From Trichobilharzia regenti (lineage: Eukaryota; Platyhelminthes; Trematoda; Strigeidida; Schistosomatidae), in contig OX235263.1 of assembly GCA_944472135.2 (NCBI GenBank), positions 29,379,379 through 29,443,378 on the forward strand: DNA of 64,000 nt. The letters are read 5' to 3'. This document shows, piece by piece, positions 16,997-64,000 of the stretch. The translations under genes were made by a program, and so were the position numbers. How positions within the stretch are numbered: position 1 is the first letter of the stretch; every line of letters begins with the position of its first letter. Under the pieces are notes generated by a model, which was not told the DNA's origin, made no database searches, and saw nothing but the letters and a program-made list of their open reading frames with translations.

Positions 16997-18118
16997 AGCT
17001 ACTACTGTTGATACTACCGGGTGCCATCGACAATAATACATCTCATCCAACGGTTATACGACAATGTTGCATGTAAAGTATTCCACAACGGGAAACTTAC
17101 GGAAGCCTTCGAAGTGGGGACGGGAGTGCGACAAGGCTGTCTACTATCACCAATGATCTTCCTGATCGCAGTAGACTGGATAATGTGACAGACAGACAAC
17201 GGGAGATGAGGAAACAGGCATAAGATGAACTCACACAAAAAGAGACTTGGAGGATCTGGACTTCGGCGATGATATGCATATGTCTGATTTCCCACAGACT
17301 GGAAGATATGCAAGTGAAAAGCAACAAGCCGGCAGAAGATGCATCCAGAGAAGATAGGACACCATTCAGGTGAACATAGATAAAACAGAGGTGATGAAGA
17401 TTCCTGGCCAACACCAACAACCACAGCAACAACAACAGACAACAATCAGCCAGCATAAATGGGAGGAACCTGAAAGAAACAACCTCCTCCTACACCTACC
17501 TACCTAACTACCTGGGAAGCATCGTTTCAACTACAGGCCAGCGGAACTGACGAGGATATCAAAGCCAGAATCGGAAAAGCAAGACAAGCTTTCATTACTC
17601 TCAAGTCTGTGTGGAGGTCAACACTCAGCACTCAGCATCAAAAATAACATCCGTCCGGATTTTCAACTCCAATGTGAAGTCAGTCAGTGCTACTCACCGT
17701 ACGGATCAGAGACTTGTCCAGTGCGTCATAAAGAGCATCTCAAACAAACTTCAGACATTCATCAACAGCTAGCTGTCTTCGCTCAATACCACTCAAGATC
17801 AGATGGCCGGCCAGAAAAGATCAGGAACAGGGATCTCTGGCAACGAGCGAACTAACCAACCAGGAACCGATTGTGAAACAAATAGGCGGGAAGAAATGGA
17901 GATGGATTGGCTGGCCATACGCTGAGGAAATCATCAAGTGACATCACCAGACAAGCCATCACTCGAGTGGAACCCGAAAGGGAAGCGGGCGGCGAGTTGG
18001 TCGTCCAGTGGTGGGGTGACTTGGAGGAGGTCATGTGAAGAGAAGATGAAAGCATGTGGGCAGACTTTGAGCAGGGTGAAAAAGTTGGCAGAAAACCGAA
18101 GGCAATGGAGACCACTAT
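16997..18118 (+). mobile_element. RTE-II retrotransposon, 5'-truncated copy
   Basis: Starts inside the RT palm: HNGKLTEAFEVGTGVRQGCLL then SPMIFLIAVDWIM (motif B region, GVRQGCLLSP), motif C as LEDLDFGDDMH (FGDD; a 4-base insertion follows GATGAT), VNIDKTEVMK, then the thumb and tail in changing frames (KARIGKARQAF, LKSVW, EHLKQT, RWPARKDQEQ, MDWLAI, TRQAIARVEP). Ends near AATGGAGACCACTATATA without the usual tail. Contains 4-bp insertions CTAG at 17769 and TCCG at 17655. Family II differs from RTE-I throughout but is collinear with it. Confidence 0.85.
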
Positions 18119-18399
18119 ATATTTTTTTCTAAGTATAAATACGACTGTTCATTCTCTGAAGATGATTTCGTCGATAAAGCGAATTTTATTCGCCGAATCT
18201 GTCTTTTATATCATCTGTCTAATGATGCCTTATATCATTTAGTCGTTAGATATCAGTTAAGAGATACTTTTATCGAGTTACATATTCTTAAAATAATTTT
18301 ACTCCAGATTCTGCTATTTTATACGTTGCTTTAGGACAAAACCAAGGCTGGATTGACAAATACAGGTTGTTATATAAGAGGTGTTTGTAATAACCCTTT

Positions 18400-18628
18400 T
18401 TTCCTTCACGTTGCCGGTGGAACAAATGGCTTCAAGCTAGTGCCTTGAAGTTTCTGTAGCAGTGTTTAATTTTTACAGGATGGGGTCGCTAGCCTCATGC
18501 CCAACCTTTCCGCTTTACCAGCATTATTTCTGGCTCAGCGAGGTAAAGGAGTGCGTCGGTGAACGGGGGGTCGAACCCCGGACTATGTGCATGATCGGCG
18601 AGCGTCCTAACCGCTATACCACCGACGC
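18400..18628 (-). mobile_element. SINE-D copy with TSD (minus strand)
   Basis: Complete SINE-D on the minus strand: head GGTATAGCGGTTAGGACGCT and box B GGGGTTCGACCCCCC (about 18566-18580), RTE-5'UTR-like body, tail CTTGAAGCCATTTGTTCCAC. Flanked by the 11-bp TSD TAATAACCCTT at about 18389-18399 and 18630-18640. Relatively young. Confidence 0.9.
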
Positions 18629-18640
18629 GTAATAACCCTT

Positions 18641-19439
18641 AGTCTGGTGTATTTCAATAAGATTCTTGAAGTGGTACTGAGTTCGACTCTCCATGGGAAA
18701 TCTAACCCAGCTTGGTACAACTAGGTCCAAATATTGTATTTCTATTAAACAGAATTCAGCAAAGCAGTCTTTCTTTTTCTTCGTCTAAATATATACGTGA
18801 TATTGTCAACTTAGTGGTGTCAATTTAGGATTTATTCGGCAAGCATATGTTTTAAAATTTCTAGAAAGTTTCTGTTCTTAGATTTACAGCCAAACGTAAT
18901 CTAAAAATACTTATTATGAAAACGTCATGAAAGAATAATAACTAGAAGTCACTAGGTAATCTTTTCCACCGAATATCCAATTTCAAAAGCAATTTTGATG
19001 CTTTCCAGCGCTTCTTGACATATCTGTAGTCTCCTGAGAATCGCAGTGTATATAAAACTCTGTAAGTGCATGTCTTAATGGATGTAATCCAACAAAGGAT
19101 AAGATCCAAGTTGTATGGTGGGCTTTTGACTTAGTCGTATTCTCTGAGCTGGTTGACTTAACTGCAAAGCTTTTGTCGCCCCCCTTTTAGACAGCATTCC
19201 GCTTCAGCGCAGGTTTTTAATATGAAATGAACTTATTTGAATTCTCCATAAATGAAAAAGATTGTGTCTCCTGACGACCACTGTCGTAACTGGTTGTTAA
19301 CTTACGTCTCTGTTGATCATATTTTTTTGATTGACTTGGAATTCAAACTTTCTTATCATGTGATTTACTTTTCATTAGCTGGTAAATTAAGTTTGTAGTA
19401 ATATGTTTGTTAACTGCTGATTCACTTGAGTACCAGGCT
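18641..19439. other. spacer, no gene seen
   Basis: No supported gene or repeat. Confidence 0.5.
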
Positions 19440-19472: not shown

Positions 19473-19694
19473 TTATACATTCTTCCAATCAGACTGATGT
19501 CCATAATTATCTTTATGCATTGATATGAAAGAATATATATCATGTCTTTCTAGAGCCGATTTGTGTTCTTGGATTCGGATCCGAAGGAGACGCCCACTGT
19601 GACCAATGTAATGGCTGTTACAGTTCATACAATTTATTTGGTAAATGATATTAACTGTATTTTCTTTTCCTGTTAGATCTTTTGCTTTGCACAA
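19473..19694 (-). pseudogene. PLE GIY-YIG endonuclease domain
   Basis: 73 codons open: KDLTGKENTVNIIYQINC, MNCNSHYIGHSGR, LLRIRIQEHKSALERHDIYS. The IYQI (GIY strand), C-x2-C, HYIG (YIG strand), the following Arg and the R-QEHK block are those of the Penelope nuclease. The usual catalytic Glu region further downstream ends at a stop after WKNV. Upstream frames are broken, so it is not expressed as part of a full protein. Confidence 0.8.
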
Positions 19695-20171
19695 TACAGA
19701 ATGAATTGATTGGGCTGGCTTGTGTGCTATATCTATTTCAAACGGTTTTAATATTCCAGCTGTTTTTTCAGAGATCTTTTATGTATGGTAGAATGACTTT
19801 TCTTTGATGATGGTTTCTTGTTAGTGTTATGAATCGAATTCAAACACTTCTTGATGAAATTGTGGGAGTATTCATTCTGTTTGAAGAAACGGTTAGTAGG
19901 TATTTTTCCTCCATTCTCTTCAACAACGGAGTGCTACAGCGTGTTTAAACTCTATTAAACAATGTCTGCACACAGTTTCTTTCCTGGGTAATTAAGTTAT
20001 TGTTATTATGGTTGAGTATTTGGTCTGTGTGCGTCGATTTTCCATATACTTGTGTTTCTAAATCTCCTGTTAGTTCTCTTGATTAAGAATTGACTAAGAA
20101 TTTTGTGGTCTAATTCTTGATCTTTCGTAAATTCGATATATTCAAATATGTTGTTTACTAATTTGTGGGTG

Positions 20172-20406
20172 CGTCGGTGGTATAGCGGTTAGGACGCTCG
20201 CCGATCATGCACATAGTCCGGGGTTCGACTCCCCGTTCACCGACGCACTCCTTTACCTCGCTGAGCCAGAAATAATGCTGGTAAAGAGGAAAGGTTGGGC
20301 ATGAGGCTAGCGACCCCATCCTGTAAAAATTAAACACTGCTACAGAAACTTCAAGGCACTAGCTTGAAGCCCCATGTTCCACTGGGGAACAAGGAAGGAA
20401 AAAATG
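20172..20406 (+). mobile_element. SINE-D copy nested in PLE, with TSD
   Basis: Complete SINE-D: CGTCGGTGGTATAGCGG head, box B GGGGTTCGACTCCCC (20220-20234), body with GGTAAAGAGGAAAGGTTGGG, GCTACAGAAACTTCAAGG, tail TTGAAGCCCCATGTTCCACT. A 9-bp TSD TTGTGGGTG lies at 20163-20171 and 20407-20415. The insertion separates the PLE RT from its nuclease, so it post-dates the PLE. Confidence 0.92.
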
Positions 20407-20468
20407 TTGTGGGTGTATTTCAAATCATTTCTTTTAATTGCTACTATTGTATCATGAAACTAACGGAC

Positions 20469-20840: not shown

Positions 20841-21568
20841 CTAAGCACTGACTGGTGAAATATGAAGTTTAAAAAAAGAAGCTCTAGTATTTCAAAACAG
20901 TGCAGAAGTTTTGTAGGTCAGGTGGATGTTTTCATTATTTTTACATTCTGAAATGAATGCTTTAACAGCGGAAGTGTCATTATTCGCCTAGACAACATCT
21001 TCATCACTGAGAATCAAGGTTTCAGAGTCAAAACAACCACCCAGTTCAGAGAATTTTTAGCATTCTATCAGAATACCGTAATCGGAGAGCTCCAGATATG
21101 GCAATATTTCACTCAATAAACGTCTAAAATATAATGCACAAAAACTGTCTCATCTCTAAGTACTGTACGCCAAAAGTGTTTTTTCGTTCTCTACTACAAC
21201 TGAAGATAGGTGTGGCCGTAAAAGCACTAGTAAATAATAATAATAATAAAATGTCTTAAATACTGAAAATTAATAATAATTTATTGTTCAATTAATAAAC
21301 ATTACTCATTCAATCACTTATTCGTTGACTCACTCCTTAGTCTAATGAAAACGTTTACTGGAAATTTCATTTATCTAAAGTGATTCATGTTTTATAATAA
21401 CTTACATCTTGACCTATATACTTCAAACGCATAGGCTTGTTTGCTTACTTAATTAAACTTATCAGTTATTCAGCTCATTCATTGAGTTGTCACATCAATT
21501 GGATGTAATTTATTAAAATTCAAGTAGCACTAATAAGAATTATAATAAAAGAAATTAAATAATTGTTC
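20841..21568. other. spacer, no gene seen
   Basis: No supported feature apart from a short (TAA)n at about 21236-21249. Confidence 0.5.
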
Positions 21569-22905
21569 TGACCAAATTGAAACTCTACGCATCATCATCA
21601 CAGAACAAAGCATGGAATGGCAATCAAACCTCTACTTCAACTTTATAGACTTCGAGAAGGCCTTCAACAGAAAGCGTTAGCCGAGAAGCAATTTGGAAAC
21701 TACTCGAATACTACGGCGAGCAGCGCCCAAATATCCATCAATCTTATTCAACAGCTGTACGACAACGGAGGCACATGTCAAGTCATCCACAACGGAAAAC
21801 TCAGCGAGGCGTTTGGAGTCAACACAGGAGTCAGACAAGAGTGCATATTATCTATCACCCATGATGATATTCCTAATTGTCGTGGACTGACTGTATTATG
21901 CGTCAGACAGTGCAGTGGGAAACGAGAAGACAGGGAGGGATATCCTGGACCGACCGATGTGAAGAACCTAGAAGACCTGGATTTAGCGCGTGGATGATTT
22001 ATGTTTGATGTCACTGTCACAAAATCGAAGACTTACAAGCAAAAACCGACCGACAAACTGGTCGAAGAAGCAGCCGGCGAAGACAGGACTCCAAGTGAAC
22101 ATAGACAAGACGGATGTGATGAAAATAACCAACCACCACCAACAACAACAGCAACCACAGAAACATCCAGCATCAATCGCCTACCATCAACGGGAGGGAT
22201 TTGAAAGAGATTACTTCATTCACTCACTTATCTAGCACTGAGCATTGTCTCAACTACAGGATGTCGGAACGGACGAGGATGTCAAATCGAGCGAGAATCG
22301 GGAAGGCGAACGAGAAACACATTCATCAACCTGAAACAATCAATTTGAAAATCTTTGTCACTCAGCCAACATCAACAACAAAATTCGGTCAGATTTTCAA
22401 TACAAACGTCAAGTCAGTCAGTTCTTCTATACGGATGAGAATCTTGGCGGGCGGGTCACAAAGAATGTTTCCAACAGCCTGTTGCAGACCCTTATCAACC
22501 AACGACTGTCTTCGCTGGATGTATACTGAAGATCAGATGGCCAGGCCGGAAATAATCACCAACAAGGAACTATGGCTGGAAACAAACAAAACAAGAACCA
22601 ATCGCCCAACAAATATGCAGGAGAAAGTGGAGATGGATTGGACACTCGCTCGCTGAGGAGGCGGCTGGGTGACATCGCGCGAGCGTCAGGCCATCACTCG
22701 AGTGGAACCAGGACGAAAGGGAAGCGGCGAGTGGGACGTCAGTGCAAGGGTAGGTGACATGGAGGAGATGGTGTGAAGAGGAGTTGAATGAGTATGGACT
22801 AACATGGATGCAGGTGAAAAGTACAGCTGAAGGAAGACAGAAGTGGCAGGTGGGGACGTGCAGTTGAAGCCCTATGTTCCACCAGGAACCTAAGGGAACA
22901 ATAAT
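21569..22905 (+). mobile_element. RTE-I retrotransposon, 5'-truncated copy
   Basis: Starts in the RT fingers (LRIIITEQSMEWQSNLYFNF then IDFEKAF, motif A with catalytic Asp), passes motif B (VRQECILS) and the disrupted motif C (LEDLDLARG, stop), and continues through DKTDVMKITN, RTRMSNRARIGKANEK, INLKIFVTQ, YTEDQMARPE, to the tail GAAGCCCTATGTTCCACC and (TAA)n. The frame changes by one at almost every 4-bp insertion: after GGCCTTCAACAG, at TACGGCG (21714), at ACTG (21886), CGAG (22288), CAAC (22499), CTCG (22645). Confidence 0.88.
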
Positions 22906-23908
22906 AATAAGATAGTCCAATCCACTCTGCTCTCTTTAGACTTTGATAATTTTGTGACGTAATTCTAATGATTAATCCAGCTCAGAGATCTCAACTACGT
23001 AAAAATCATCCAAATGAGCTACAAATCTCCATCATAACTAACGATTATCTCTTATCATGGTACATACATTATTAGATAATAATAATAATAATAAAGATAA
23101 TTTAAGGCGTTACACTAAACTATTTCTGGCTGCAGTTATATTTTGTTATTGTATTCTATCATGACTCAGTAAAATGAAATTACTAAACATTTTTAAAGGA
23201 TTTTCAATGTTTAATCAGGCACTGTGTTATGTTATATAACATAATGTATGTAGAGATAAGTGTAATTCGTTTATATTACTACGAAAAAGTTTGATACAGA
23301 TACATACATACACACACACACACTTAGAGACCGGTGGCTAACATACGCCTACACTACACTACACACAAAGCACCAGAGCATTATTCTCTTTTTTTTCAAC
23401 CAATCATATCTCTCGTAGAATAAACAGTTTCATAATTTTGGCTTGCTGATTACTAACTAAAACATGTCCATATATAGGACTAATACGTGCGATGAATATT
23501 TAAGACTGACTAATGGTTTGTTTTCTTAAAGAATTCAGTATAACTGACTGAATATGGTGGTGTAAGTAAATAGCCATCACCACCAACACCACCAAAACAA
23601 TAACGGCAACAACAACGACAGTGCCAACAGCTACTCACATTGAAAAAAACACAACAACTTATCACGACAAAACAGCAATAATCAAAATAAGACTAACATT
23701 TTTATTGTATAATACGGATGTGAATGACTCATGAAAAATGTTATATTTAAAAGGATTTTATATAACTTATTATTATTATGTTTAAATGTTTCAAATTGTT
23801 CTGTTTCTTTTACAAATTGTACAGAGTCAACTATAGCAAAATTTAATTACACGTATTTGCGTCAAACGTATTCACTTTACAGTTGTATCAAGCATATCAC
23901 AACCTTTA
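22906..23908. other. spacer with short microsatellites
   Basis: (TAA)n near 23077 and (CA)n near 23308-23323; no gene. Confidence 0.5.
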
Positions 23909-26514: not shown

Positions 26515-26515
26515 T

Positions 26516-27150
26516 ACCTACCTGGGAAGCATCGTTTCCACTACAGACGGACGGAACTGATGAGGATATCAAAGAAAAGATCGAGAAAGTAAGACAAGCT
26601 TTCATTACTCTCAAGTCTGTGTGGAGGTCAACAGCACTCAGCATCAAAAATAACATCCGTCCGGATTTTCACCTCCAATGTGAAGTCAGTCAGTGCTACT
26701 ATACGATTGGATCAGAGACTTGTCGCGTCATAAAGAGCACCTCAAACAAACTTCGGAACTTCATTAACAGTTGTCTTCGCTCAATACCTTGCTCGAGATC
26801 AGATGGCCGGCCAGAAAAGATCAGGAACAGGGATCTCTGGCAACGAGCGAACCAACACAGCAGGGACCGATTGTGAAACAAATAGGCAGGAAGAAATGGA
26901 GATGGATTGGCTGGCCATACACTGAGGAAACCATCAAGTGACATCACTGGCGAGCCATTGCTCGAGTTGAACCCGAAAGGGAAGCGGGCGGCGAGTTGGT
27001 CGTCCGAGAGTGGGGTGACTTAGAGGAGGTCATGTGAAGAGAAGATGAAAGCATGTGGGCAGACTTGGAGCGGGGTGAAAACGTTGGCAGAAAACAGAAG
27101 TCAGTGGAGAAGGGCAGCTGAAGCCCTATGTTCCTCTAGGAATTAAAGGA
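26516..27150 (+). mobile_element. RTE-II retrotransposon, 3' copy
   Basis: Begins TACCTGGGAAGCATCGTTTC (YLGSIV), then thumb and tail coding sequence: LKSVW, the GSET region, CLRS, RWPARKDQEQGSL, TRQ/ARVEP, ending GAAGCCCTATGTTCCTCTAG and AATTAAAGGATA. It lacks the 4-bp insertions seen in the copies at 17713 (GCCA type) and 17769 (CTAG), so it shows the uninserted state at both sites, but has GGAC at about 26551 and TCCG at about 26660. Confidence 0.85.
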
Positions 27151-28034
27151 TATACTAATAATAATGATTTGAGTTGTTCTTCTAAACTTTAATCAATAAA
27201 CTCTTCGTTTAAGATCAGTCTAGTATATTTAGTATAAATCGTATAGTATAGTTAATAAAAAAAAGTTTTCAATAACTAACATTAATACTTCAGAACAGGC
27301 AAAACAAAGGTATAAAATAAAACACAAAAAAGTGTATAGCACTGCATTACACGTTCATACAACATGTATATATGTATATATAAGTAATCAGGTAACTAAA
27401 TCAGATTTCACCTGAGTCTATTTCAGAATCGTTTGCCAGAGAGAAAACCAAAATACTCATTTCAATATCATCCTGTTGAAACATGAAAATTTGTTTACTA
27501 CAAAACTAGAAAAGTCCAGATAAATAGTATTTTTTCTAAACTAAAGATTTACATAAGAGGAAAGAAGTAGTAAATAGACTATTTAGAGATTGAGTTTCAT
27601 TGAAGGTATGTAATTTTACTTGCAAGTGTCTGTGTGTGCCTGTGTGTCTGTGATGCACATGTTTCTGCTGTTGAATAAAAATGTTTTTAATGTATAAATT
27701 AGTTAGAATCATCCTTGAACTTAAAGTATTAGATCATGAACTCTGTTGTTCAGTGTATTGTTTAGACATATATATAAAAGGATAATTTTTGCATATGTAA
27801 TGCTTTAAACAATGTACTCTTTACAGGTAAAGTAGACAAACATTACAGCATAAATAAAAAGAACCTGTTATGCATAGTATAACCTTGAATAGAGTGTAAA
27901 AATAATATTATATGGGGTAGATTTTAGCTAGATAGTATTGACGATTGCTTCTGTCATCGATACTTTTTCAACTGACTACTTATCATTTGCTTACTTATCA
28001 TCACATGTTGTTTATTTCATTTCTTGAGTTTCGA
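27151..28034. other. spacer, no gene seen
   Basis: AT-rich; short GT-rich run near 27625. Confidence 0.5.
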
Positions 28035-29232: not shown

Positions 29233-30433
29233 TATTCTTCGTTTTATTTTTCTATAGCTTAGTATTTCCTGAAAATTTCTCATTCTTTTCATACTCGATT
29301 TCGTAAAACGTTTCTGATTGAAAACAAAATTAGAAGATGAGTACAAAATCATTAGGATTTTCTGTGTATTGTCAGCGTATTTATTATTCACCTGTTCATC
29401 TAATTCATCTTATACTGATGATGTCTGCAAAAAACTTTTCTTCTGAAGGCAAAATTAGTTGGAAAAGTTTTATGAACAGATGTTACAAAATGGATGCCCT
29501 TCATCATCAGTTCATTTTGTAATTAGTTGTTTTTTTTTCATTTACTTCACAAACTCACATACATAATGTAAGCACAGAATTTTTTATTTTGAAAAGCAAA
29601 GCAAACAGAACGGTTATTAAAGTCAACTAAGAGGCAAATGATAACTATAGCCTTACCGTTGTAATCTAATCTTATCCCCACTACTATTACTTGACTAGTC
29701 ATTGTGTGGACTATAATTGGAGGAAGAACAAAACAATGTGCAGAATAATGCAGGTCCATTTTATCTTATGCGCTTTCTTCAGCTACGTACAGCCCACAAC
29801 AATCAGTACAACGTGTTACAATACAGTTGTAGCTTTTTTTTTTTAAAGTTCATCAATAGAAATCGGACACCAAGTATTGAACAGTTTGATAGGGTCAAAG
29901 TCAAGTAAAACATGAGCATGACAAGTTGAGTTATTTTATTCTGCCACCCACAACAATATTTTCTTAAGACAACTCTCTTTCCTTCTCTAATTAGGTATGT
30001 ATTTAAACCAATTTAACAGAACTTATCATTCTTATGTTTTACTTAACTGTGACTGTGTTACAATCTTCATTATTGGATAGCTGATCCCTATTAATGAACT
30101 GAAACATTGTTAAAATTTTTGGTCACAATACGTCGTACTGAGTGTTATGAGCTATTAACAGCTGAAAATCATCCACGAAATAGAAGGAATCCATGTTATT
30201 CTGCTGCAGTGTTTTGTTCTTGCTCTTTTCATGGTTGCACATTTACGAGTTAAGGAGAGAAAATGAATGCGAAGATGCAGTCAGACTGCCAAAGATATAT
30301 TGCGAAAATATATCACATTTTCCAGATAAGCTCCAACTTTTTAGTTATGTTATCCAAATAATAGCTTTACTGTTTGAAAGCAAGGGAAATTTCCGCTATA
30401 CCTGTGATGGCGTTTAATTTTAAAAATGAATAT
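29233..30433. other. spacer, no gene seen
   Basis: Several 60-75 codon frames; none has a recognisable domain. Confidence 0.45.
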
Positions 30434-30539
30434 CATTATTATTAATTGCTCCCTTGGGTTCCTAGTGGAACATAGGGCTTCAACTCCACGTCCCCACCTA
30501 TCACTTCTGTCTTCCTTCTGCTGTACTTTTCACCTGCAT

Positions 30540-32633
30540 TCATGTTAGTCCATACTCATTCAACTCCTCTTCACACCATCTCCTCCATGTCACCCTTGGA
30601 CGTACCACACGCCGCTTCCCTTTCCGCCTGGTTCCACTCGAGCGATGGACTGACGCTCGTGCGATGTCACTCAGCCGCCTCCTCAGCGAGCGAGTGTCCA
30701 ATCCATCTCCACTTTCTCCTGCATAATTATTTGTTGTTTGGCGATTAGTTCTTGTTTTGTTTGTTTCCAGCCATAGTTTCTTGTTGGTGATTGTTTCCGG
30801 CCCGGCCATCTGATCTTCAGTATACATCCAGCGAAGACAGTTGTTGATAAAAGTGAGGTCTGCAACAGGCTGTTGGAAATATTCTTTGTCACCCACCCGC
30901 CAAGCTTGTGATCCATATAGAATAGCTGACTGACTTGACGTTTGTATTGAAAATCTGACCGAATTTTGTTGTTGATGTTGGCTGAGTGACGAAGATTTCC
31001 AGATTGATTGTTTCAGGTTGATGAATGTGTTTCTCGTTCGCCTTCCCGATTCTCGCTCGATTTGACATCCTCGTCCGTTCCGACTCCTGTAGTTGAGACA
31101 ATGCTCAGTGCTAGATAAGTGAGTGAATGAAGTAATCTCTTTCAAATCCCTCCCGTTGATGGTGGCGATTGATGCTGGATGTTTCTGTGGTTGCTGTTGT
31201 TGATGTTGGTGGTTGGTTATTTTCATCACCTCCGTCTTGTCTATGTTCACTTGGAGTCCTGTCTTCGCCGACTGCTTCTTCGACCAGTTTGTCGGTCGGT
31301 TTTCGCTTGTAAGTCTTCGATTTGACAGTGACATCAAACATAAATCATCCACGCGCGAAATCCAGGTCTTCTAGGTTCTTCACGTCGGTCGGTCCAGGAT
31401 ATCCCTTGTCTTCTCGTTTCCCACTGCACTGTCTGACGCATAATCCAGTCAGTCCACGACAATTAGGAATATCATTGGTGATAGATAATATGCACTCTTG
31501 TCTGACTCCTGTGTTTACTCCAAACGCCTCGCTGAGTTTTCCGTTGTGGATCACTTGACATGTGCCCCGTTGTCGTACAGCTGTTGAATAAGGTTGATGA
31601 ATATTTGGGGTACGCCGTAGTACTCGAGTAGTTTCCAAATTACTTCACGGTCAACGCTGTCTGTCGAAGGCCTTCTCAAAGTCTATAAAGTTGAGGTAGA
31701 GGTTTGATTGCCATTCCATGCTTTGTTCTGTGATGATGATGCGTAGAGTTGCAATTTGGTCAGTACATGATTTGCCTTTCCTGAATCCAGCTTGTTCTGG
31801 TCGGAGTTCTGTCTCCAGTGCGTCCTTTAATCTCTCCAGGATGATGCGACTCAGGATTTTACTTGGCGTCGACAGGAGCATGATTCCTCGCCAGTTCTTG
31901 CAGAGTGGTAGTTTCACGAGGTAACCTTTCTTCCTTAGACTTTCCTCCAGTCAGTAGGCACCTTTCCCTCCTTCCAGACCTTTTGCAATAATGGAGTCAG
32001 CATGTCTGCTGTAGTCTCTGGGTCTGCTTTCAGTGCTTCAGGGGGTATTCCATCTGGTCCGGCTGCTTTTCCAGCTTTCAGAAGCTTGATTGCGTTCAAG
32101 ACTTCAGCTCTCGTTGGAGGATTGGTGTCAACTTGCAGTTGTGTGCGCGCTGTTGTTGGTATTTCTGGACGGGTTGCAGGTGATGGTCGGTTCAAGAGTC
32201 CTTTGAAGTGATCCGCCCATTGTTTAATCTGTTTTTCTTCCTTGGTAATTGGGTTCCCTTGGCTGTCTTTTATAGGTTTCGCTTGTGTTGATCTCTTCCC
32301 GGATAGAGATTTGGTTATCTGATATAGTGTCCTCAGGTCCCTTTTGCCTGCTGCCTTCTCAGCTTCAGTGGCCAGGTTGTCGTAGAATCGTCTTTTGTCC
32401 TTCCTAGCACTCTTCTTCACTTCTTTGTCCAGTGCTGTGTAAGTTGAGCTCGTCTCCTTCTCCTGTCCGTCCTTGCATTGAATCATTTTCTCTTTCACCA
32501 TTCTCCTCTCTTCTATTAATTTCCAAGTGTCCGTTGAGAGCCATTCTTGTCTTGTCTCTTCTTTCTTCCTAGAACCGTTGAACACGTTTCGTTGAGAATC
32601 GCCTTCAGAGACTTCCAATGTTCTTCCACGCAT
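30540..32633 (-). pseudogene. RTE-I reverse transcriptase, frameshifted
   Basis: Segments in order: 32633-31935 (EWLSTDTWKL, ending AGKAAGPDGIPPEALKAD and VWKEGKVPTDW), 31917-31651 (KNWRGIMLLSTPSKILSRI, EQAGFRKGKSCTDQIATLRI, IDFEKAFD with the motif A catalytic Asp), 31638-31345 (VNTGVRQECILS motif B; NLEDLDFARG), 31352-30540 (DDLCLMSL, then VNIDKTEVMKIT, RRWCEEELNEYG). Each joint is a small insertion: a 5-bp repeat at about 32551, a 14-bp gain near 31945, GACA duplicated at about 31660, TATC duplicated at about 31475, ACTG duplicated at about 31446, and four extra bases inside FADD at 31353. No functional RT can be made from one frame. Confidence 0.88.
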
Positions 32634-33595
32634 GATTCTTCAGTGATGTCGCGTAGTGTTTCCTGCTTTGCTCTGACAGTTGCAGTGAAAGTGTCTTTTG
32701 TGGTTGTGTCCTTCAGTAATTGAGTGTTGAACTTGCATTGTGGCCTATCCCCAGCTATCCTCGAGGCTTTTAGTTTCACCTTGAAAGTCCCTTCTACTAG
32801 ATAGTGGTCTGAACCCACATCTGCTCCTCTCCTTGACCTTGTGTCCAGTAGGCTCCGTCTCCACTTTCTTGAAATTGAGATGAAGTCTATTTGGTTCTTG
32901 GTGTTTCCATCTGGTGAAATCCATGTCGTCTTGTGTATATCCTTGTGTTTGAACACACTACCACCAATCACCAAATCATTGAAGGCGCAGAAGTCTGAGA
33001 AGAGTTCACCATTGTCGTTCATTTCGCCGAGGGCCTCACGACCCATGGTGAGTTCTCTTCCTGTGTTGTCTCCTCCCAGCTTCGCATTCATGTCGCCCAT
33101 CAGGATTTTGATATCGCCATTTGGGACGTTGTCCATTATTGCTTGTAGTTGTCTGTAGAACGCCTCCTTCTTCTCTTGTTCTGAGACGTTTGTAGGCGCA
33201 TAGCATTGAATGACTGTAACTTTCCTTCCTTTTGAGTTGAACCTGGCTGTCATTATCCTGGAGGAGATTGGTTCCCACTGCATGAGAGCTTTGGTTGCTG
33301 TTGGTGACATCATGATGGCCACTCCCTCGGTGTGCTCGTGGTTGTCCTCTGGGTGGCCGGAAAAGATTACTGTCTCTCCAGTAGGTAGTTGGCACCTTCC
33401 AGTTCCGTTCCATCTGCTTTCGCAGATTCCCAACACTTCTATTCTGTACCTTCTCATTTCAGCGGCTATCTGGGCAGCCTTTCCAGTTTCGTACATTGTA
33501 CGAACATTCCAGGTACCCATCCTTACTTTTGCTTTCATCGAAAGAAGGCACATCGGCTGACTGGCTTCCCGAAGGCTTTCACCAGCCTGCGTCAT
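32516..33595 (-). CDS. RTE-I AP-like endonuclease ORF
   Basis: 359 codons from an ATG (MTQAGESLRE) to a premature stop caused by a frame change into the RT. It is an exonuclease-endonuclease-phosphatase fold nuclease that nicks target DNA to prime reverse transcription. Visible catalytic blocks: GTWNVRT (Asn30), ICESRWNG (Glu59), IQCYAPT (Tyr132), LMGDMNAKLG (Asp168, Asn170), NQIDFI (Asp237) and GSDHYLV (Asp263, His264); all canonical residues are present, so the domain could be active if translated. In an intact element it would continue directly into the RT in one polyprotein. The same N-terminus occurs in the deleted copy at 49358-50595. Confidence 0.9.
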   Translation of the reverse strand: MTQAGESLREASQPMCLLSMKAKVRMGTWNVRTMYETGKAAQIAAEMRRYRIEVLGICESRWNGTGRCQLPTGETVIFSGHPEDNHEHTEGVAIMMSPTATKALMQWEPISSRIMTARFNSKGRKVTVIQCYAPTNVSEQEKKEAFYRQLQAIMDNVPNGDIKILMGDMNAKLGGDNTGRELTMGREALGEMNDNGELFSDFCAFNDLVIGGSVFKHKDIHKTTWISPDGNTKNQIDFISISRKWRRSLLDTRSRRGADVGSDHYLVEGTFKVKLKASRIAGDRPQCKFNTQLLKDTTTKDTFTATVRAKQETLRDITEESCVEEHWKSLKAILNETCSTVLGRKKRQDKNGSQRTLGN

Positions 33596-34040
33596 TTCAC
33601 TTCCCCGATTCCAGCGAAAAATAAGGCTATTGTTTATATTTTTAGAATTTTTAATATATTTATTCGTTGAAGTTTCTGTAGCGATTTGGTTGTTTTACGG
33701 GGGTGGAGTTGCTAGCACCACACCCCAACCCTCCCTCTTTATCCGGGCTTGGGACCGGCTAGAAAACTAGGAAGCTAGTAGCCTAGCAAGCTGGTATCTG
33801 GCGGGGTTTTTAAATACGAGTAAAACATAAATATGCATTTCATAGAAATCAGAACGAGTGAAACGACCATCTGGTGGGCAGATCACTTCTGTTTGACCAG
33901 CAAGCGGTATTAAATGGTATCAGCAGTTTACAATTGCTCATAACAATCAATACTATATACCATCATAAATATTATTTTTACGCCGTACTTAATGAGATAA
34001 AATAGATCAAGAGAATAAATTTTAGAGGAAAGATTTCTGT

Positions 34041-38320: not shown

Positions 38321-38332
38321 ACTACAGTTTAT

Positions 38333-39845
38333 TATTATTATTATTGTTCCCTTGGGTTCCTAGTGGAAGATAAGGCTTCCACTGCACGTCTCCATTTGCT
38401 TCTGTCCTCTGCTGTACTTTTCACCTGCATCCATGTTAGTCCATAGTGACTGTTTCAACTCCTCTTCACAACATCTCCCCATGTCACCCTTGGACGTCCC
38501 ACACGCCGCTTCCCTTTCCGCCTGGTTCCACTCGAGCGACGGACTGACGCTCGTGCAATGTCACCCAGCCGCCTCCTCAGCGAGAGAGTGTCCGATCCAT
38601 CTCCACTTTCTCCTGCATTCTTATTTATTGTTTGGCGATTAGTTCTTGTTTAGTTTGTTCCCATAGTTTCTTGTTGGTAATTGTTTCCGGCCCGGCCATC
38701 TCATCTTCACTATACATCCAGCGAAGACAGTTGTTGATAAAGCTCTGATCTGCAACAGGCTGTTGGAAATATTCTTTGTGACCCACCCGCCAAGCTTGTG
38801 ATCCGTATAGAATAGCTGACTGACTTGACGTTTGCATTGAAAATCCGACTGAATTTTGTTGTTGATGTTGGCTGAGTGACGAAGATTTCCAGATTGATTG
38901 TTTCAGTTGATGAATGTGTTTCTCGTTCGCCTTCCCGATTCTTGCTCGATTTGACATCCTCGTCCGTTCCGACATCCTGTAGTTGGACAATGCTCAGTGC
39001 TAGATAAGTGAGTGAATGAAGTAACCTCTTTCAAATCCCTCCCGTTGATGGTGGGTGATTGACGCTGGATGTTTCTGTTGTTGTTGTTGGTGTTGTTGTA
39101 GGTTGGTTATTTTGATCACCTCCGTCTTGTCTATGTTCACTTGGAGTCCCGTCTTCGCCGGCTGCTTCTTCGACCAGTTTGTCGGTCGGTTTCGCTTGTA
39201 AGTCTTCGATTTTGTGACAGTGACATCAAACATAAATCATCCACGCGCGAAATCCAGGTCTTCTAGGTTCTTCACGTCGGTCGGTCCAGGATATCCCTCC
39301 CTGTCTTCTCGTTTCCCACTGCACTGTCTGACGCATAATCCAGTCAGTCCAGGACAATTAGGAATATCATCGTTCGTGATAATAGGCAGGCAGCCTTGTC
39401 TGACTCCTGTGTTGACTCCAAACACCTCGCTGAGTTTTCCGTTGTGGATGACTTGACATGTGACGCCGTTGTCGTGCAGCTGTTGAATAGTGTTGATGAA
39501 TATTTGGGCGCTGCTCGCCGTAGTATTCGAGTAGTTTCCAAATTGCTTCTCGGCCAACGCTGTCTGTCGAAGGCCTTCTCGAAGTCTATAAAGTTGAAGT
39601 AGAGGTTTGATTGCCATTCCATGCTTTGTTCTGTGATGATGATGCCTAGATTTGCGATTTGGTCAGAACATGATTTGCCTTTCCTGAATCCAGCTTGTTC
39701 TGGTGGGGCGGAGTTCTGTATCCAGTGCGTCCTTTATTCTCTCCAGGATGATGCGACTCAGAATTTTACTTGGCGTCGCCAGGAGCATGATTCCTCGCCA
39801 GTTCTTGCAGACTGGTAGTTTCACGATGTAACCTTTCTTCCTGAA
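38333..39845 (-). mobile_element. RTE-I retrotransposon, 5'-truncated copy with TSD
   Basis: Minus strand from the RT fingers (GYIVKLPVCKNWRGIMLLA-like, ending IDFEKAFDRQR) to the tail and (TAA)n. A 12-bp TSD ACTACAGTTTAT lies at 38321-38332 and 39846-39857. It shares the FADD-disrupting insertion (about 39246), the GACA duplication (about 39561), the 4-base gain at TACGGCG (about 39513) and ACTG (about 39344), and has a private CTGC duplication near 39388 where other copies have TATC. Confidence 0.9.
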
Positions 39846-39857
39846 ACTACAGTTTAT

Positions 39858-44235: not shown

Positions 44236-44589
44236 ATATTTCTGAATCTAATAGGACTAACTTTCATTAAAATACTGAGCTACAGTTTTATGTCACTTCT
44301 TATTCAAGTTTATCTTTCTCATTGTCTTCTTTGTTTGAATACACTGACCAAAATATACGTACGTCTGCATTATAGCTTTGTTAAAATGTTTTTGTCTCTT
44401 ATCTGGTTTCATTTTGTTGTAAATCATTGCATCGCAGTCTAACTTTGTGCTTTTACTTAAGATTTGAACATAATTCAAGAGAGAGAGAATAAAGCCTTCA
44501 CTGGCAAAAATAAATGGCTTCATGTGGTATCAGTTTGCATGTATAACTTAGGTGGTATCCTCCACCAGGTTAAATTTTACTTTGTGATA

Positions 44590-45205
44590 AATATATTAGT
44601 TCCTTCACTTATCTAGGAAGACAGCCAGCCAGAATCGGAAAGGCAAAATACACCGTCATCAACCTGAAAGCAGTGCGGAAATCTTCTGCACTCCATGGCA
44701 TAGAAAACAGGATTCGGATTTCCAACACAAATATCAAGTCTGTCAGTTTTTCTATACGGGTCAGAAACTTTGACCAGTGTGTCATGAAAAAGATTTTCAA
44801 CAGGTTGCAGACGACTTTTATCAACAGCTGCCTTCGCTTCGTAATAAACATCAAATGGCCTGCTAGAAAGAAGTGGTAACAAGAAATTCTGACAACAAAC
44901 CAACCAAGAGCCAATCGCTCAACAAATATGTTGGAGAAAATGGATATAGTTGGGGCCATACGTTGAAGACGCCGTCGAATGAAGTCGCCATCATCAGGCC
45001 ATGTAAGGGAGTCGCATTGGGAAGCAATGAGTCGGTCGTCTCTTCGAGAGTGACATAGAGAAGATCGTGCGAGTTTGCTGGAGATGAGAGATAGTGGGTA
45101 ATCATGAACCCAGCTGAAGAGGATGGTATAAAATAGAAGAAACAGGAGATGTGTTGTTGAAGCCCTATGTTCCACTCAAAGACCAAGGGAATATTAATAA
45201 TAATA
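44590..45205 (+). mobile_element. old RTE retrotransposon relic
   Basis: Reads ARIGKAKYTVINLKAV, SSALHGIENRIRISNTNIKS, INSCLRFVINIKWPARKKW, ending GAAGCCCTATGTTCCACTC and (TAA)n at about 45192. Collinear with RTE-I/II tail regions but diverged. It has four extra bases at the KS|V site (TCTGTCAGTT) and near GACCAGTG. Confidence 0.75.
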
Positions 45206-46127
45206 ATAATAATAACCACATTGAAAATGTATAGGTGTTTAAACACTAACAAATTAAACAATTCCAACAGCTTACGTGATCACAGGCAGTAATTTTACTC
45301 GAAATATTACCAAAATTAAAAAAAATACTTATCAGTTTGTTTAAACTATTGAAATATTATAATTATTCTGATCTACTCCAACTTTGAAGATCAGGCTGAA
45401 GAGTCCCAAACCGAGATGAAACATTTATTAAGTCGTTGTTGGTCTTTAATAGTTCTCTCACTGCTATATGTAAGTAATTTAACGTGGAATTAATTAAATC
45501 TTTTTAAACCAACACTTAAAGATTTAAATTTATTAAAACAAATATAAGACTTAAATATCTATGGAATAACAAACTTTTCTTAATATAAACCAGTAGTTAA
45601 TAAAGTTAAAGTAGGTTCTGGTTCCGTACAAATTTTTAAACAATATCTCCTGAATTATTAGCAGAGATTTCAAATCCAGCTGAAACTAAGTCTTTACAGT
45701 GTTATTCTTTATTTTAAACTAGATCCGTTTGACTTATTAAAGTTTTATTCAGAAGGAAAATTAATAATTGAAGAGAGAGAGAGAACAAATATTGATGCAG
45801 AATAGGATGGATCTATTTTATTTTGTTGTTTCTCGTTAACTGTGTGCAACCTGTAAGATTTCAGCAAACAAGTTATGATACGATTTTAACATACATTTTT
45901 CACTTAACTTTTATATTAGACTTAATTTTTGATTCTTTGAATTCTATTTCTCACTAGATTATATCGTCCTGTTTTAATTCGACTTCCTATACACCCAATA
46001 TTGATCTTTCCACTTTTATGAATTCTAATCAGTATATATTTTATTATACCTGTTCATGCAAATATCACTGACTTATCCCCATCCTAATAACCAGTTGATT
46101 CATTTCCTTACGGTAAACTTTGCTCTT
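45206..46127. other. spacer with a SINE-B hammerhead fragment
   Basis: 45395-45480 contains AGG CTGAAGA GTCCC AAACC GAGAT GAAAC, a SINE-B hammerhead 5' half with an intact CTGANGA core and GAAA but no cleavage site. Otherwise no gene; a GA-rich run near 45773. Confidence 0.5.
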
Positions 46128-49347: not shown

Positions 49348-49357
49348 TTTTCATAAA

Positions 49358-50595
49358 ATCATTATTATTATTGCTCCTTTGGGTTCCTAGTGGAACATAA
49401 GGCTTCAACTGCACGTCCCCACCTGCCACTGCTGTCTTCCTTCTACTGTACTTTTCACCTACATACATGTTAGTCCATACTCATTCAACTCCTCTTCACA
49501 CCATCTCCTCCATGTCACCTAACCTTGCACTGACGTCCCACTCGCCGCTTCCCTTTCGACCTGGTTCCACTCGAGCAATGGCCTGACGGGAGTGCGATGC
49601 CTCCTCAGCGAGTCTCCATCCAATCCATCTCCGCTTTCTCCTGCATATTTGTTGAGCGATTGGTTCTTGCACGCCGGTTTGTTCCCATAGTTTCTTGTTG
49701 GTAATTGTTTCCGGCCCGGCCATCTGATCTTCAGTATACATCCAGCGAAGACAGTTGTTGATAAAGCTCTGGTCTGCAACAGGCTGTTGGAAATATTCTT
49801 TGTCACCCGCCCGCCAAGCTTGTGATCCGTATAGAATAGCTGACTGACTTGACGTTTGCATCGAAAATCCGACCGAATTTTGTTGTTGATGTTGGCTGAG
49901 TGACGAAGATTTCCAGATTGATTGTTTCAGTTTGATGAATGTGTTTCTCGCTCGCCTTCCCGATTCTTGCTCGATTTGACATCCTCGTCCGTTCCGAGTG
50001 GTTGTGGTTGACACAGTGCTCCCTAGATAAGTGAGTGAATGAAGTAATCTCTTTCAAGTCCCTCCCGTTGATGGTGATTGGCGCTGAATGTTGCTGTGGC
50101 TGTGGTTGGTTGGTTATTTTCATCACCTCCGTCTTGTCTATGTTCACTTGGAGTCCTGTCTTCGCCGGCTGCTTCTTCGGTGAGTTTGTCGGTCAGTTTT
50201 CGCTTGTAAGTCTTCGATTTTGTGTGACATCAAACCTCTTTAATTCGACGGCTATCTGGACAGCCTTTCCAGTTTCGTACATTGTACGAACATTCCAGGT
50301 ACCCATCCTTACTTTTGCTTTCATCGAAAGAAGGCACATCGGCTGACTGGCTTCCCGAAGGCTTTCATCAGTCTGCGTCATTTCACTTCCCCGAATCCAG
50401 AGAAAAATAAGGCTATTGTTTATGCTTTTAGAATTTTTATTATATTTATTCGTTGAAGTTTCTGTAGCGATTTAGTTGAGTTTTACGGGGGTGGAGTTGC
50501 TAGCACCACACCCCAACCCTCCCTCTTTATCCAGGCTTGGGACCGGCTAGAAAACTAGGAAGCTAGTAGCCTAGCAAGCTAGCAATCTGGCGAGG
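49358..50595 (-). mobile_element. RTE-I internal-deletion derivative with TSD
   Basis: Both RTE-I ends are present but the middle is gone. Minus strand: 5' UTR (from 50595, GGGAGGGTTGGGGTGTGG and GCTACAGAAACTTCAACG), the first ~47 endonuclease codons (MTQTDESLREASQPMCLL, GTWNVRTMYETGKAV), then a direct jump at about 50236 to the region after RT motif C (QNRRLTSEN), thumb, tail and (TAA)n. TSD TTTTCATAAA at 49348-49357 and 50596-50605 shows that it moved as a ~1.24-kb unit or was deleted after insertion. It lacks both nuclease and RT, so if mobile it needs a helper RTE. Confidence 0.88.
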
Positions 50596-58530: not shown

Positions 58531-58733
58531 GTGTTGTAAAACTTCAAATTAGGACAAAAGGTTTGTTCAGTACTCCAGATCACCTAAAAAGTAACGTTAA
58601 TTTCTACGAAATTATTGCTACACACACGTTGGTAACAGTTTAAAATATGTCAATTGCCAATGGATACGTAATGGATGTATTACATTTTTGGATGCAGTTC
58701 CTCAGAAATATGCGCCTTTATGCCTTTGTAGTG

Positions 58734-58964: not shown

Positions 58965-58977
58965 TGCTTTTGTAGTG

Positions 58978-60585: not shown

Positions 60586-62112
60586 CAGCGGACTTGATGA
60601 CGCCACTACTGGAGAAGGTGTGGAAAGAAGGCAAAGTACCTTAGGATTGGAAGAAAGGATACTTATTCAAACTACCAAAGAGAGTAAACATAAGTAAATG
60701 TAAAAACTGGCGCGGAATTATGCTCCTATCCATTCGAAGCAAAATACTAAGCCGAATCATCCTGGGGAGAATCAAACATCCACTGGAACAGGCTGGATTA
60801 AGGAGAAACAAAGCATGTATTGATCAAATTGCCACTCTACGAATCATCATTGAACAAAGCTTAGAATGGCAGTCACCTCTCGAACTCAGCTTCATCGACT
60901 TTGAAAAGGCCTTCGAAAGCGTCAATCGAGAAGTGATTTGGCAACTACTTCTCTACTTCGGGGTGTCATCGATAATTATACATCTCATCCAACAGTTATG
61001 CGACAATGCTGCATGCCAATTAATCTACAACGGGAAACTTACGGAAGCCTTAGAAGTGAGGACGAAAGTGAGACAAGGCTGTCTATTATCGCCAATGATA
61101 TCCCTGATTGCAGTAGACCGGATGATGCGACAGACAGACAACAGGAGATGAGGAAACAGGTATAAAATAGACTCACACAAAAAGAGACTTGGAGGATCTG
61201 GACTTCGCCCATGATATATATATATATATATATTTCTGATTCCCCACAAACTGGAAGATACGCAAGTGAAAAGAAACAGCCTGGCAGAAGAATCATCCAG
61301 AGAAAATATGACTTCAGGTGAACATAGATAAAACAGAGATGATGAAGATTTATGGCCAACATCAACAGCAACAACAACAGACAGCAATCAGCCAGCATAA
61401 ATGGGGGGAACCTGAAAGAAACAACCTCCTTTACCTACCTACGTACCTACGTACCTGGGTAGCATCGTTTCAACTACAGGCCAGCGGAACTGACGAGGAT
61501 ATCAAAGCCAGAATCGGAAAAGCAAGACAAGCTTTCATTACTCTCAAGTCTGTGTGAGGTCAACACTCAGCACTCACCATCAAAAATAAGATCCGTCCGG
61601 ATTTTCACCTCCAATGTGAAATCAGTCAGTGCTACTCGCTATACGGATCAGAGACTTGGCCAGCGCGTCATAAAGAGCATCTCAAACAAACTTCAGACCT
61701 TCATCAACAGCTAGCTGTCTTCGCTCAATACTTCGCTCAAGATCAGATGGCCGGCCAGAAAAGATCAGGAACAGGGATCCCTGGCAATGAGTGAACTAAC
61801 CAACACACCAGGAACCGATTGTGAAACAAATAGGCGGGAAGAAATGGAGATGGATTGGCTGACCATACGCTGTGGAAACCATCAAGTGAGTGACATCACT
61901 AGACAAGCCATCGCTCGAGTGGAGCCCGAAAGGAAGCGGGCGGCGAGTTGGTCATCAGTGCAAGAGTGGGGTGACTTGGAGGAGGTCATGTGAAGGGAAG
62001 GAAATGAAAGCATGTAGGCAGACTTGGAGCGGGTGAAAACGTTGGCAGAAAACAGAAGGCAATGGAGAAGGGCATCTAAGGCCCTATGTTCCTCTAGGAA
62101 TTAAAGGATATA
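60586..62112 (+). mobile_element. RTE-II retrotransposon, longest copy
   Basis: 5'-truncated within the RT fingers. The 143-codon frame 60720-61151 covers KILSRIILGRIK, EQAGLRRNKACIDQIATLRI, FIDFEKAFESVNREVIW (motif A, catalytic Asp), VRQGCLLSPMI (motif B). Motif C should be FADD but reads FAHD at about 61204 and is followed by an AT repeat (61213-61233) in place of the next codons. The thumb and tail follow in shifting frames (VNIDKTEMMK; ARIGKARQAFITLKSV; ITRQAIARVEPER), ending GCCCTATGTTCCTCTAGG. At motif A it has no GACA duplication, unlike RTE-I. Confidence 0.88.
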
Positions 62113-63148
62113 ATAACAATAAAAGAATAGTTACAGAGGTAATTTGAATTTTGCCTATCAAATCATATCAGAGTATCATTCAGTTGATAAGTACATTTTC
62201 TCCCTAATAATAATAATAATAATAATAAAATCAACTCAAATTATATAATTATTGGTATTTAATGTGAACCTTTTACGCATACATCATCAAATTTAATCTT
62301 TTTCCGTATTATCGTTTACATTTTTAGGAAAGAAGATATTAAATATGCATAATTCACAGATTGTTCTTAAATAGTGTTTCTTTTTAGCAATTCATGAAAC
62401 CCACTTCTAATCACAGATAAAATTTCTTTGAGAATTGTGAGAATTTCTTCTCACTGACAATTTTCTTCATTGTCTTAACAATTATGCTGTTGTCATGGTG
62501 ACTTTGGTGACAGTATAAAAAAGTCAAATAAAATAAACAGTAGTCAGTAATATTCTGACATTCTTGCGTCATCTATCTTATGCATTAATAAAGAAAACGG
62601 TAGTAGTAGTAGTAGTAGTAAGTAAATGGGGTAAGGAAACAGAGAAAAGCTACGAAAAATGGTGAACACTGTTTTAATAGACATAAAATATTCTCACTTT
62701 CACAGTTAATGTGGGTTGCTTATTGAACAAAAAATGGAGTTACGCATCAAAAATGAGAAGAAAAAGCCTATAAGCTAACCTCTCCTTTTGTCACTTAATA
62801 ATAATGTTTCCTTTTTTAAACAAAAAACCACAGGACCACTACTTATTAATTAGAGATATTAATCAATTTAATGTTTTTAAACAACTAACTAGTTTCTTCT
62901 ATTACATTCTAATGCCGAGTAAAATGATTGCGCTAAATTTAAAATAATAGCAAGATGAATTTTTTCTTATTTTCTGTATTAATTTACGCATTAATGTCAT
63001 TTACCTATGAGTTTCCTTTATCAATATTTTGTCTTTAAGGTGAGCGTGAAGCTAAAGTAGATAACTTGAGTAATTAACTGGAAGGTGAACTCAATTAGCA
63101 ATCTGTAGTCTTATACCTGTTAAACTATATTTAGCTGGTGTAAGTATT
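62113..63148. other. spacer with microsatellites
   Basis: (TAA)n at about 62205-62229 and (GTA)n at about 62600-62621; no gene. Confidence 0.55.
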
Positions 63149-63332
63149 GCGTCGGTGGCACAGTGGTTAGGACTCTCGCCAACCATACATATGGTCCGGG
63201 TTCGATCCCCTACCGACGCACACCTTGATATCTATGGTCGGCCTGCAAAATTTGGGCTACCGATATCTATGCTGAAAATTTCATACTTTTACTAAAAATA
63301 CAGTGTGGAATCAAGCTGTAATAAAAAAATTT
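63149..63332 (+). mobile_element. SINE-E copy
   Basis: GCGTCGGTGGCACAGTGG head, box B GGGTTCGATCCCC (about 63197-63209), body TTGATATCTATGGTCGGCC, tail GTGGAATCAAGCTGTAAT and A run. Confidence 0.8.
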
Positions 63333-63596
63333 AGTAGTAGTACATTTAGAGCGAAATTTTTGTTCATTTTCTTGTCGACATTGGAGGAGAAACAGTGACA
63401 GAGCTTTAAATCGGAGTATTTTGTGAATAACTAACATTGTTCTTCTATCATTTTAGTAGTATATATGTGTATATATTTTTAAGATAAAACGTCAAGTGAA
63501 GTGTCAGGACGCATTCAAAATAAGAAGTCATTTTTAGAGACAAAGTGTGTTGCACATTTGAATTACTGAGTTGGTGAAACACAGTGTATATTATTA

Positions 63597-64000
63597 TTGT
63601 TTCCTCTAACTCCAAGAGGAACATATGGCTTCAGCTGCGCGTCTCCATTGCCTTCTGTTTTCTGCCAACGTTTTCACCCGCTCCAAGTCTGCCTACATGC
63701 TTTCATCTCCTTCCCTTCACATGACCTCCTCCAAGTCACCCCACTCTTGCACTGATGACCAACTCGCCGCCCGCTTCCCTTTCGGGCTCCACTCGAGCGA
63801 TGGCTTGTCTGGTGATGTCACTTGATGGTTTCCACAGCGTATGGCCAGTCAATCCATCTCCATTTCCCCGCCTATTTGTTTCACAATCGGTTCCTGGTGT
63901 GTTGGTTAGTTCACTCATTGCCAGGGATCCCTGTTCCTGATCTTTTCTGGCCGGCCATCTGATCTTGAGCGAAGTATTGAGCGAAGACAGCTAGCTGTTG
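63597..64000 (-). mobile_element. RTE-II retrotransposon, 3' end, runs off window
   Basis: Minus strand from the window edge: CAGCTAGCTGTCTTCGC (with the CTAG insertion), RWP-ARKDQEQGS-like, ELTNTPGTDCETNRR, GHTLWKPSSDITRQ then AIARVEPER, and a terminal GAAGCCATATGTTCCTCTTG at 63605-63635. Shares private variants with the copy at 60586-62112 (TGTGGAAACCATCAAG), with which it is tail-to-tail. Confidence 0.85.

What the first reader, a model, noticed from the sequence alone, without database searches (positions are those of the whole stretch)
16997..64000. Recurrent exact 4-bp tandem duplications across unrelated repeat families
Seen directly: copies of the same element differ by exactly 4 bp at many sites, usually a perfect tandem duplication. 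Presence/absence pairs: CAG[CTAG]CTGTC at 17766 and 61708 but CAGTTGTC at 26768; CTTG[GCCA]GCGCG at 61655 (similar at 17713) but CTTGTCGCG at 26719; GGACTG[ACTG] at 21884, 31444 and 39340 but GGACTGGATT at 3299; CTCG[CTCG]CTGAGG at 22645 and 30681 but single at 3992 and 49602; a 4-base gain after TACGGCG at 21714 and 39513 but not at 31612. Others are fixed in all copies seen: TCCG at 17655, AGTC at 17688, CGAG at 22288, TGGC at 17906, GACA at 31660. Removing 4 bases each time restores the frame expected of RTE proteins, so these are insertions in a once intact ORF. Most lie in the RT half of RTE-I/II, but a 4-base insertion also sits in the SINE-C ribozyme core (8335-8345) and CTAG is variable in SINE-B heads. 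Ordinary decay gives mixed 1-3 bp indels. Possible sources (inference): fill-in of 4-nt staggered breaks, footprints of an element with a 4-bp TSD, or tetranucleotide slippage by the element's own RT.
Basis: partly seen in the sequence, partly recalled or inferred. Interest (0 to 1): 0.85.

Follow-up and report, generated by a model that had tools for sequence, protein, structure and literature searches.

The report
Jumping gene riddled with four-base duplications
In a blood-fluke-type genome, copies of two families of a jumping gene carry up to about two dozen four-base insertions, many of them tandem duplications, in one half of the element, while its other half carries almost none, which points to an unusual damage process tied to that element.

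Summary
The 4-bp duplications are real. Aligned to an intact relative's reverse transcriptase, 13 RTE copies need 175 frameshifts: 122 of +4, 19 of +8, 12 each of +5 and +7, and 10 of +-1 or +-2; a control with known indels shows no +4 bias. Of 134 +4/+8 sites in 10 copies, 55 lie in exact 4-base repeats, against 10.6% by chance. Two parts of the claim do not hold: a clear excess of exact tandem repeats is seen only in the RT half of RTE-I/II, not in the endonuclease half, SINE-like repeats, hammerhead family or 42 kb of other DNA, although the hammerhead family does have variable 4-bp indels; and between copies 1-bp indels remain commoner (35 sites to 29). In family II most +4 insertions are shared by two or more copies while private changes are mixed; family I lacks this contrast. 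Two riddled copies have 12-bp target-site duplications, so riddled versions moved. Best explanation, inferred: fill-in and end joining of 4-nt staggered breaks (topoisomerase II type) during the mobile phase of passenger RTE lineages; copying error is the main rival. The genome search did not complete.

The parts
30428..31941 (-). RTE-II copy, riddled 3' (RT) unit of a full-length element
   Evidence: 17 +4 and 3 +8 shifts against P0122, one of the +8 being the irregular join near 31946
31942..33815 (-). Endonuclease and linker half of the same element, without +4 insertions
   Evidence: PF03372 in the first ORF; one -1 shift with rulers P0012, P0003, P0001, P0009; P0005 needs two further small shifts (+2, +1); a +8 or +5 at the join
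38330..39848 (-). RTE-II copy, 5' truncated, riddled, 12-bp target-site duplication
   Evidence: 20 +4, 2 +8; flanks read by eye
21545..22917 (+). RTE-II copy, riddled
   Evidence: 19 +4, 3 +8
3250..4252 (+). RTE-II copy, riddled, 12-bp target-site duplication
   Evidence: 11 +4, 4 +8; flanks read by eye
49355..50235 (-). RTE-II copy, riddled, joined to an endonuclease 5' piece (50249-50606)
   Evidence: 13 +4, 2 +8
17012..18111 (+). RTE-I copy, riddled
   Evidence: 12 +4, 3 +8
60590..62122 (+). RTE-I copy; no frameshift over the first 183 ruler codons, then riddled
   Evidence: 11 +4, 1 +8, 3 +7
26515..27170 (+). RTE-I copy with fewer insertions; empty state at several sites
   Evidence: 7 +4, 1 +8; pairs
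63589..64000 (-). RTE-I copy, cut by window end, riddled
   Evidence: 4 +4, also +5, -2, -1
44580..45210 (+). Third, more distant RTE copy with several +4 shifts
   Evidence: 5 +4, 1 +5, 1 +2

Best explanation
Shown: RTE-I and RTE-II copies descend from coding elements whose RT half gained many 4-bp (sometimes 5-bp) insertions, about 40% of them in exact 4-base repeats today; in family II most are shared by two or more copies, and riddled copies went on to retrotranspose. Inferred: the RT-dead 3' parts moved as passengers of intact elements. While source copies were mobile or expressed, their DNA suffered two-strand breaks with 4-nt 5' overhangs that were filled in and re-joined, each leaving a 4-bp tandem copy; topoisomerase II is a known eukaryotic source of such scars. 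Clean 5' parts would have been picked up from intact elements by template switching.
For: +4 dominance with an unbiased aligner. Exact 4-base repeats at 55 of 134 sites, 25 of them with no extra matching base, which fits de novo duplication. Some 5-bp tandem events (CAGTG, GGCCG), as PMC11477040 passages report for a hyper-cleaving yeast Top2. Family II shifts in two or more copies: +4 x20, +8 x3, none of +-1 or +-2; private: 7 of +4/+8, 4 of +-1/2 (ruler P0122; p 0.007). Shared +4/+8 to amino-acid differences of the majority 19:17, private 2:62 (ruler P0128, p 9e-9) and 21:15, 2:73 (P0123, p 4e-11). Between-family substitutions show purifying selection, within-family ones are near neutral. 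12-bp TSDs on two riddled copies. T. regenti P0126 aligns in one frame to a riddled-copy ORF through shifted stretches, suggesting similar copies there.
Against: A general break process should mark other DNA; 42 kb of other sequence shows no clear tandem excess. 2- and 3-bp duplications, also part of the Top2 signature, are not conspicuous (4 of 13 and 2 of 20 exact). Only 5 to 7 of the +4 groups are in all covering family II copies (P0122 5, P0123 7, P0128 6, P0124 4). Rulers P0128 and P0124 each give one shared -1 in family II. The shared-private contrast weakens with the more distant rulers (odds about 14 with P0124 and 5 with P0122, my arithmetic) and is absent in family I (11:36 to 9:23, p 0.79). 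The hammerhead family also has 4-bp indels (4 of 8 informative indels). Enzyme, expression and passenger status are not observed; template switching rests on irregular joins read by eye near 31940 and 50240.
Confidence: 0.4

Rival explanations
1. The duplications are errors made while the element is copied (reverse transcription or processing of the insertion intermediate), so rounds of movement add them; riddled lineages are those that passed many rounds.
For: Family II insertions are mainly shared; the tandem excess is confined to RTE-I/II in this window; copies share insertions in conflicting combinations and show odd joins, as template switching would give.
Against: 25 of 55 exact repeats lack any extra matching base, hard for slippage; the pooled SINE-like class, which includes a SINE with an RTE-II-like tail, has 5 runs against 2.7 (sd 2.4); the first 2 kb of the full-length copy has no +4.
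Confidence: 0.25
2. Ordinary genome-wide indel decay with a high 4-bp class, seen often because copies are related.
For: Pairwise there are more 1-bp than 4-bp sites (35 to 29); private changes are mixed; the hammerhead family has variable 4-bp indels too. Odds raised from 0.12 to 0.15 on re-checking that last point.
Against: +4 dominates shared shifts; no clear tandem excess in the rest of the window; unbiased aligner.
Confidence: 0.15
3. A host response that cuts active RTE copies in the RT region and leaves duplications, comparable in effect to repeat-induced mutation.
For: Two families hit in the same half, at positions that do not coincide beyond chance (4 of 19 against 5.4), so probably independently.
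Against: No guide, enzyme or timing evidence; I recall no such system in flatworms.
Confidence: 0.1
4. The insertions are tolerated because the element is still translated by skipping 4 nt at each duplication.
For: Few amino-acid differences of the family II majority from an intact relative (17 of 230 columns) and no stop (P0128).
Against: Substitutions shared by two or more family II copies look neutral (5 synonymous of 20 with P0122, 9 of 28 with P0124; expected 21-27%); no known mechanism.
Confidence: 0.02
5. Sequencing or assembly artefact.
For: None found; reads could not be checked.
Against: Insertions are shared by copies and partly decayed, two copies have clean TSDs, and shifted stretches appear in T. 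regenti protein P0126.
Confidence: 0.03

Closest known systems
Topoisomerase II de novo duplication signature (yeast top2-FY,RG and top2-K720N; cancer signature ID17)
   Same: Tandem duplications of up to 4 bp where no repeat stood before, some of 5 bp with one mutant (PMC11477040, passages read).
   Different: Here tied to part of one transposon lineage and inherited; 2-3 bp duplications not conspicuous; the tumours described also carry deletions; enzyme untested.
RTE-clade non-LTR retrotransposons (SR2, SR3, Perere-3 of schistosomes)
   Same: EN and RT, about 3.2-3.4 kb, 10-12 bp TSDs (PMC1291365, passages read; here).
   Different: RT half riddled with +4 insertions yet copied onward; the passages of PMC1291365 that I read mention nothing of the kind.
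Repeat-induced mutation of transposons (RIP in fungi; recalled)
   Same: Dense damage restricted to a repeated element.
   Different: 4-bp duplications, not C-to-T changes; no evidence of a dedicated system.

Membership tests
RTE-clade retrotransposon | Apurinic-type endonuclease and reverse transcriptase | tested here: met
   PF03372 (2.3e-10) in the EN ORF; PF00078 in ORFs of the 31k and 61k copies (9.6e-13, 1.3e-17); relatives. No tree was built
RTE-clade retrotransposon | Target-site duplication of about 10-12 bp and short 3' repeat tail | tested here: met
   12-bp TSDs read by eye on two of the copies examined (3.2-4.2 kb, 38.3-39.8 kb), TAA-rich tails; none worked out for the others
Topoisomerase II duplication signature | De novo tandem duplications of 2-4 bp | tested here: inconclusive
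   4 bp met; 2 and 3 bp not conspicuous
Topoisomerase II duplication signature | Dependence on end joining and trapped topoisomerase II | not testable with these tools
   needs genetics
RT slippage | Pre-existing matching bases at the slip distance | tested here: inconclusive
   25 of 55 exact repeats have run length exactly 4, i.e. no extra match, but later decay can shorten runs
Footprint of a transposon with 4-bp TSD | Inserted elements at some of the sites | not tested
   no dedicated search made

The most novel reading that the evidence does not exclude
A process acting only on mobile RTE copies adds 4-bp tandem duplications to their RT half at a rate that, relative to substitution, is several to tens of times that of resident copies; it may be a host defence that kills reverse transcriptases by cut, fill-in and re-joining, and the number of inherited duplications would count rounds of movement since the last intact ancestor.
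Probability: 0.15. Interest if true: 0.85.

Novelty: new variant of a known kind. Interest (0 to 1): 0.6.

Why it matters
Indel scars are usually read as slow decay after a transposon lands. Here family II has about 20 insertions of one size shared by two or more copies, in one half of one element only. If this holds genome-wide it gives a natural, countable record of a specific break-and-fill or copying error in the germ line, and a way to tell passenger from autonomous transposon lineages. I saw no paper on it in four searches (0 papers; 0; 1, on cotton genes; 10 listed of 189); most subscription journals are not in that library.

Tried and rejected
IMG/VR scan for the EN protein: 12 pattern matches, none a relative. 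Positional hot spots shared by families I and II: not supported (4 of 19 sites within 1 codon, 5.4 expected). Regular spacing of insertions: looked suggestive in one copy, no formal test, dropped. Translation by 4-nt skipping: disfavoured. Window-wide mutational process: disfavoured, run first on the whole window with a heavier mask (28.8 kb masked), had shown a lag-4 excess (43 runs >=5, other lags about 20), which (6.2 kb masked) places in the RTE copies. A paper on T. szidati RT-like sequences (PMC4465651; abstract and passages) concerns Penelope-like elements and mentions no 4-bp insertions in what I read. PMC7604471 was not held.

The direct alignment count within families has only one informative 4-bp indel each in RTE-I and RTE-II (singletons 7 and 8); an insertion present in every copy does not show there at all. 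The shared-private argument therefore rests on protein rulers, merges events within 3 codons, and its counts differ by ruler. In family I the majority codons include 1 stop in 77 columns with P0128 (none with the other three rulers). Shift rates of T. regenti proteins on riddled copies (2.3-4.2 per 100 residues for P0126 and P0133, 3.7-5.3 for P0134 and P0135) are lower than for P0123 and P0124 (6.5-9.4), but the short T. szidati P0136, which reads mostly in the normal frame, has 3.6-5.4, so these rates alone are weak evidence.

Full report
What was checked. I merged indels between all repeat copies in the window into homologous sites: 1:35, 2:13, 3:20, 4:29, 5:7, 6:3, none of 7-8 (one of nine settings; 4 above 2, 3 and 5, and 1 above 4, hold in all nine). 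Seven of 29 four-base sites are exact tandem copies, against 2 of 20 three-base sites. In the listing at >=75% identity (26 four-base sites) I count 19 in RTE copies, 5 in the hammerhead family and 2 in SINE-like repeats; the 6 marked exact are all RTE.

Ruler test. An intact C-terminal RTE protein from Heterobilharzia americana (P0122) was aligned to 13 RTE copies with a frameshift-aware aligner. Needed shifts: +4 122, +8 19, +5 12, +7 12, +1 1, +2 3, -1 4, -2 2; with other costs 116, 22, 11, 9, 4, 2, 3, 2. As a control, EN-half DNA was mutated with known indels: true against called were +1 49/48, +2 19/24, +4 24/23, +5 16/15, -1 40/45, -2 29/22; the 23 true -4 events have no class of their own and show as codon losses and -1 shifts. 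So the +4 peak is not made by the method. Of 134 +4/+8 sites in 10 copies (three distant copies left out), 55 lie at an exact 4-base repeat; the null from 6153 positions more than 16 bases from any site is 10.6%. Thirty of the 55 have at least one extra matching base, 25 none.

Where it is. Without any alignment, runs of five or more matches at lag 4 number 52 in the RTE RT halves (mean of lags 6-30: 11.6), 1 against 2.7 in the EN half, 3 against 1.4 in other RTE copies, 4 against 2.9 in the hammerhead family, 5 against 2.7 in SINE-like repeats and 45 against 39.8 in the remaining 42 kb. At six or more the hammerhead family has 2 against 0.5, and 4 of its 8 informative indels are 4 bp, so a weaker 4-bp tendency there cannot be excluded. 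The full-length copy (33815-30428) has an endonuclease and linker with one -1 shift by four of five rulers (P0005 asks two more small shifts) and an irregular join near 31940, then 17 +4 and 2 +8 shifts besides the join. In the RTE-I copy at 60.6-62.1 kb no frameshift falls in the first 183 codons of the ruler. The insertions thus sit in roughly the 3' 1.0-1.25 kb; the one exception in longer copies is a non-tandem +4 near 39705.

When it arose. Differences between families I and II are mostly at third codon positions (17k against 31k: 90 of 161; 50 synonymous to 16 non-synonymous single changes), so both were coding lineages; within families the pattern is near neutral, also for substitutions shared by two or more family II copies (5 synonymous of 20, or 9 of 28 with another ruler). 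Family II shifts found in two or more copies are +4 20, +8 3, +7 3, +5 1, none of +-1 or +-2, besides six multiples of three; only 5 of the +4 groups are in all covering copies; private ones are mixed (P0122). Against T. szidati protein P0128 the family II majority differs at 17 of 230 columns with no stop, beside 19 shared +4/+8; private changes give 2 +4/+8 beside 62 amino-acid changes (p 9e-9). The contrast is smaller with more distant rulers, and family I does not show it (p 0.79), perhaps for want of a close ruler. Positions in I and II do not coincide beyond chance, so the two families were probably hit independently. Two riddled copies have 12-bp target-site duplications: they moved after being riddled, hence presumably with an enzyme supplied by intact elements. 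T. szidati proteins P0123, P0124 and P0128 are largely unshifted relatives, and T. regenti P0126 matches a riddled-copy ORF through shifted stretches, so both kinds seem to exist in related species.

Mechanism. No need for matching bases, a 4-base mode and a few 5-base events are what fill-in and end joining of 4-nt staggered ends produce; passages of PMC11477040 describe this for topoisomerase II. Why RTE RT halves? I infer that the DNA is exposed while source copies are active, and that clean 5' parts are recent captures. A SINE family whose tail matches RTE-II over about 25 bases is part of a SINE-like class without significant tandem excess, which speaks against a generic reverse-transcriptase error. 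Neither enzyme nor timing is shown; confidence 0.4.

Limits. One 64-kb window, few and related copies, protein rulers from other species, no genome-wide spectrum, no reads. The organism is a schistosomatid near Trichobilharzia and Heterobilharzia by protein relatives; the species is not known to me.

Noticed in passing
window 36330-36374, 28783-28828, 15692-15737, 46133-46178, 16821-16865, 5195-5244: Six type I hammerhead ribozymes above Rfam's gathering score; at least three lie in a repeat family of roughly 250-500 bp that also occurs as inverted pairs.
   Followed up: partly
window 58725-58966, 20162-20410, 7425-7655: A SINE family whose 3' end resembles the RTE-II 3' end over about 25 bases in the three copies compared, as in SINE/LINE partner pairs.
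   Followed up: partly
window 50235-50606 and 31941: Endonuclease pieces joined to riddled RT parts at two different places; between the two copies the endonuclease piece is 95% alike, the RT part 87%.
   Followed up: partly
window 19473-20813 (-) and 56218-56598 (+): ORF pieces that look like GIY-YIG endonuclease and reverse transcriptase of Penelope-like elements (from recall; no Pfam match at 0.001).
   Followed up: no
window 30540-31370 (-): A 276-codon open frame runs through the riddled region although the ancestral frame is broken many times; some T. szidati matches appear to read the RTE in another frame.
   Followed up: partly
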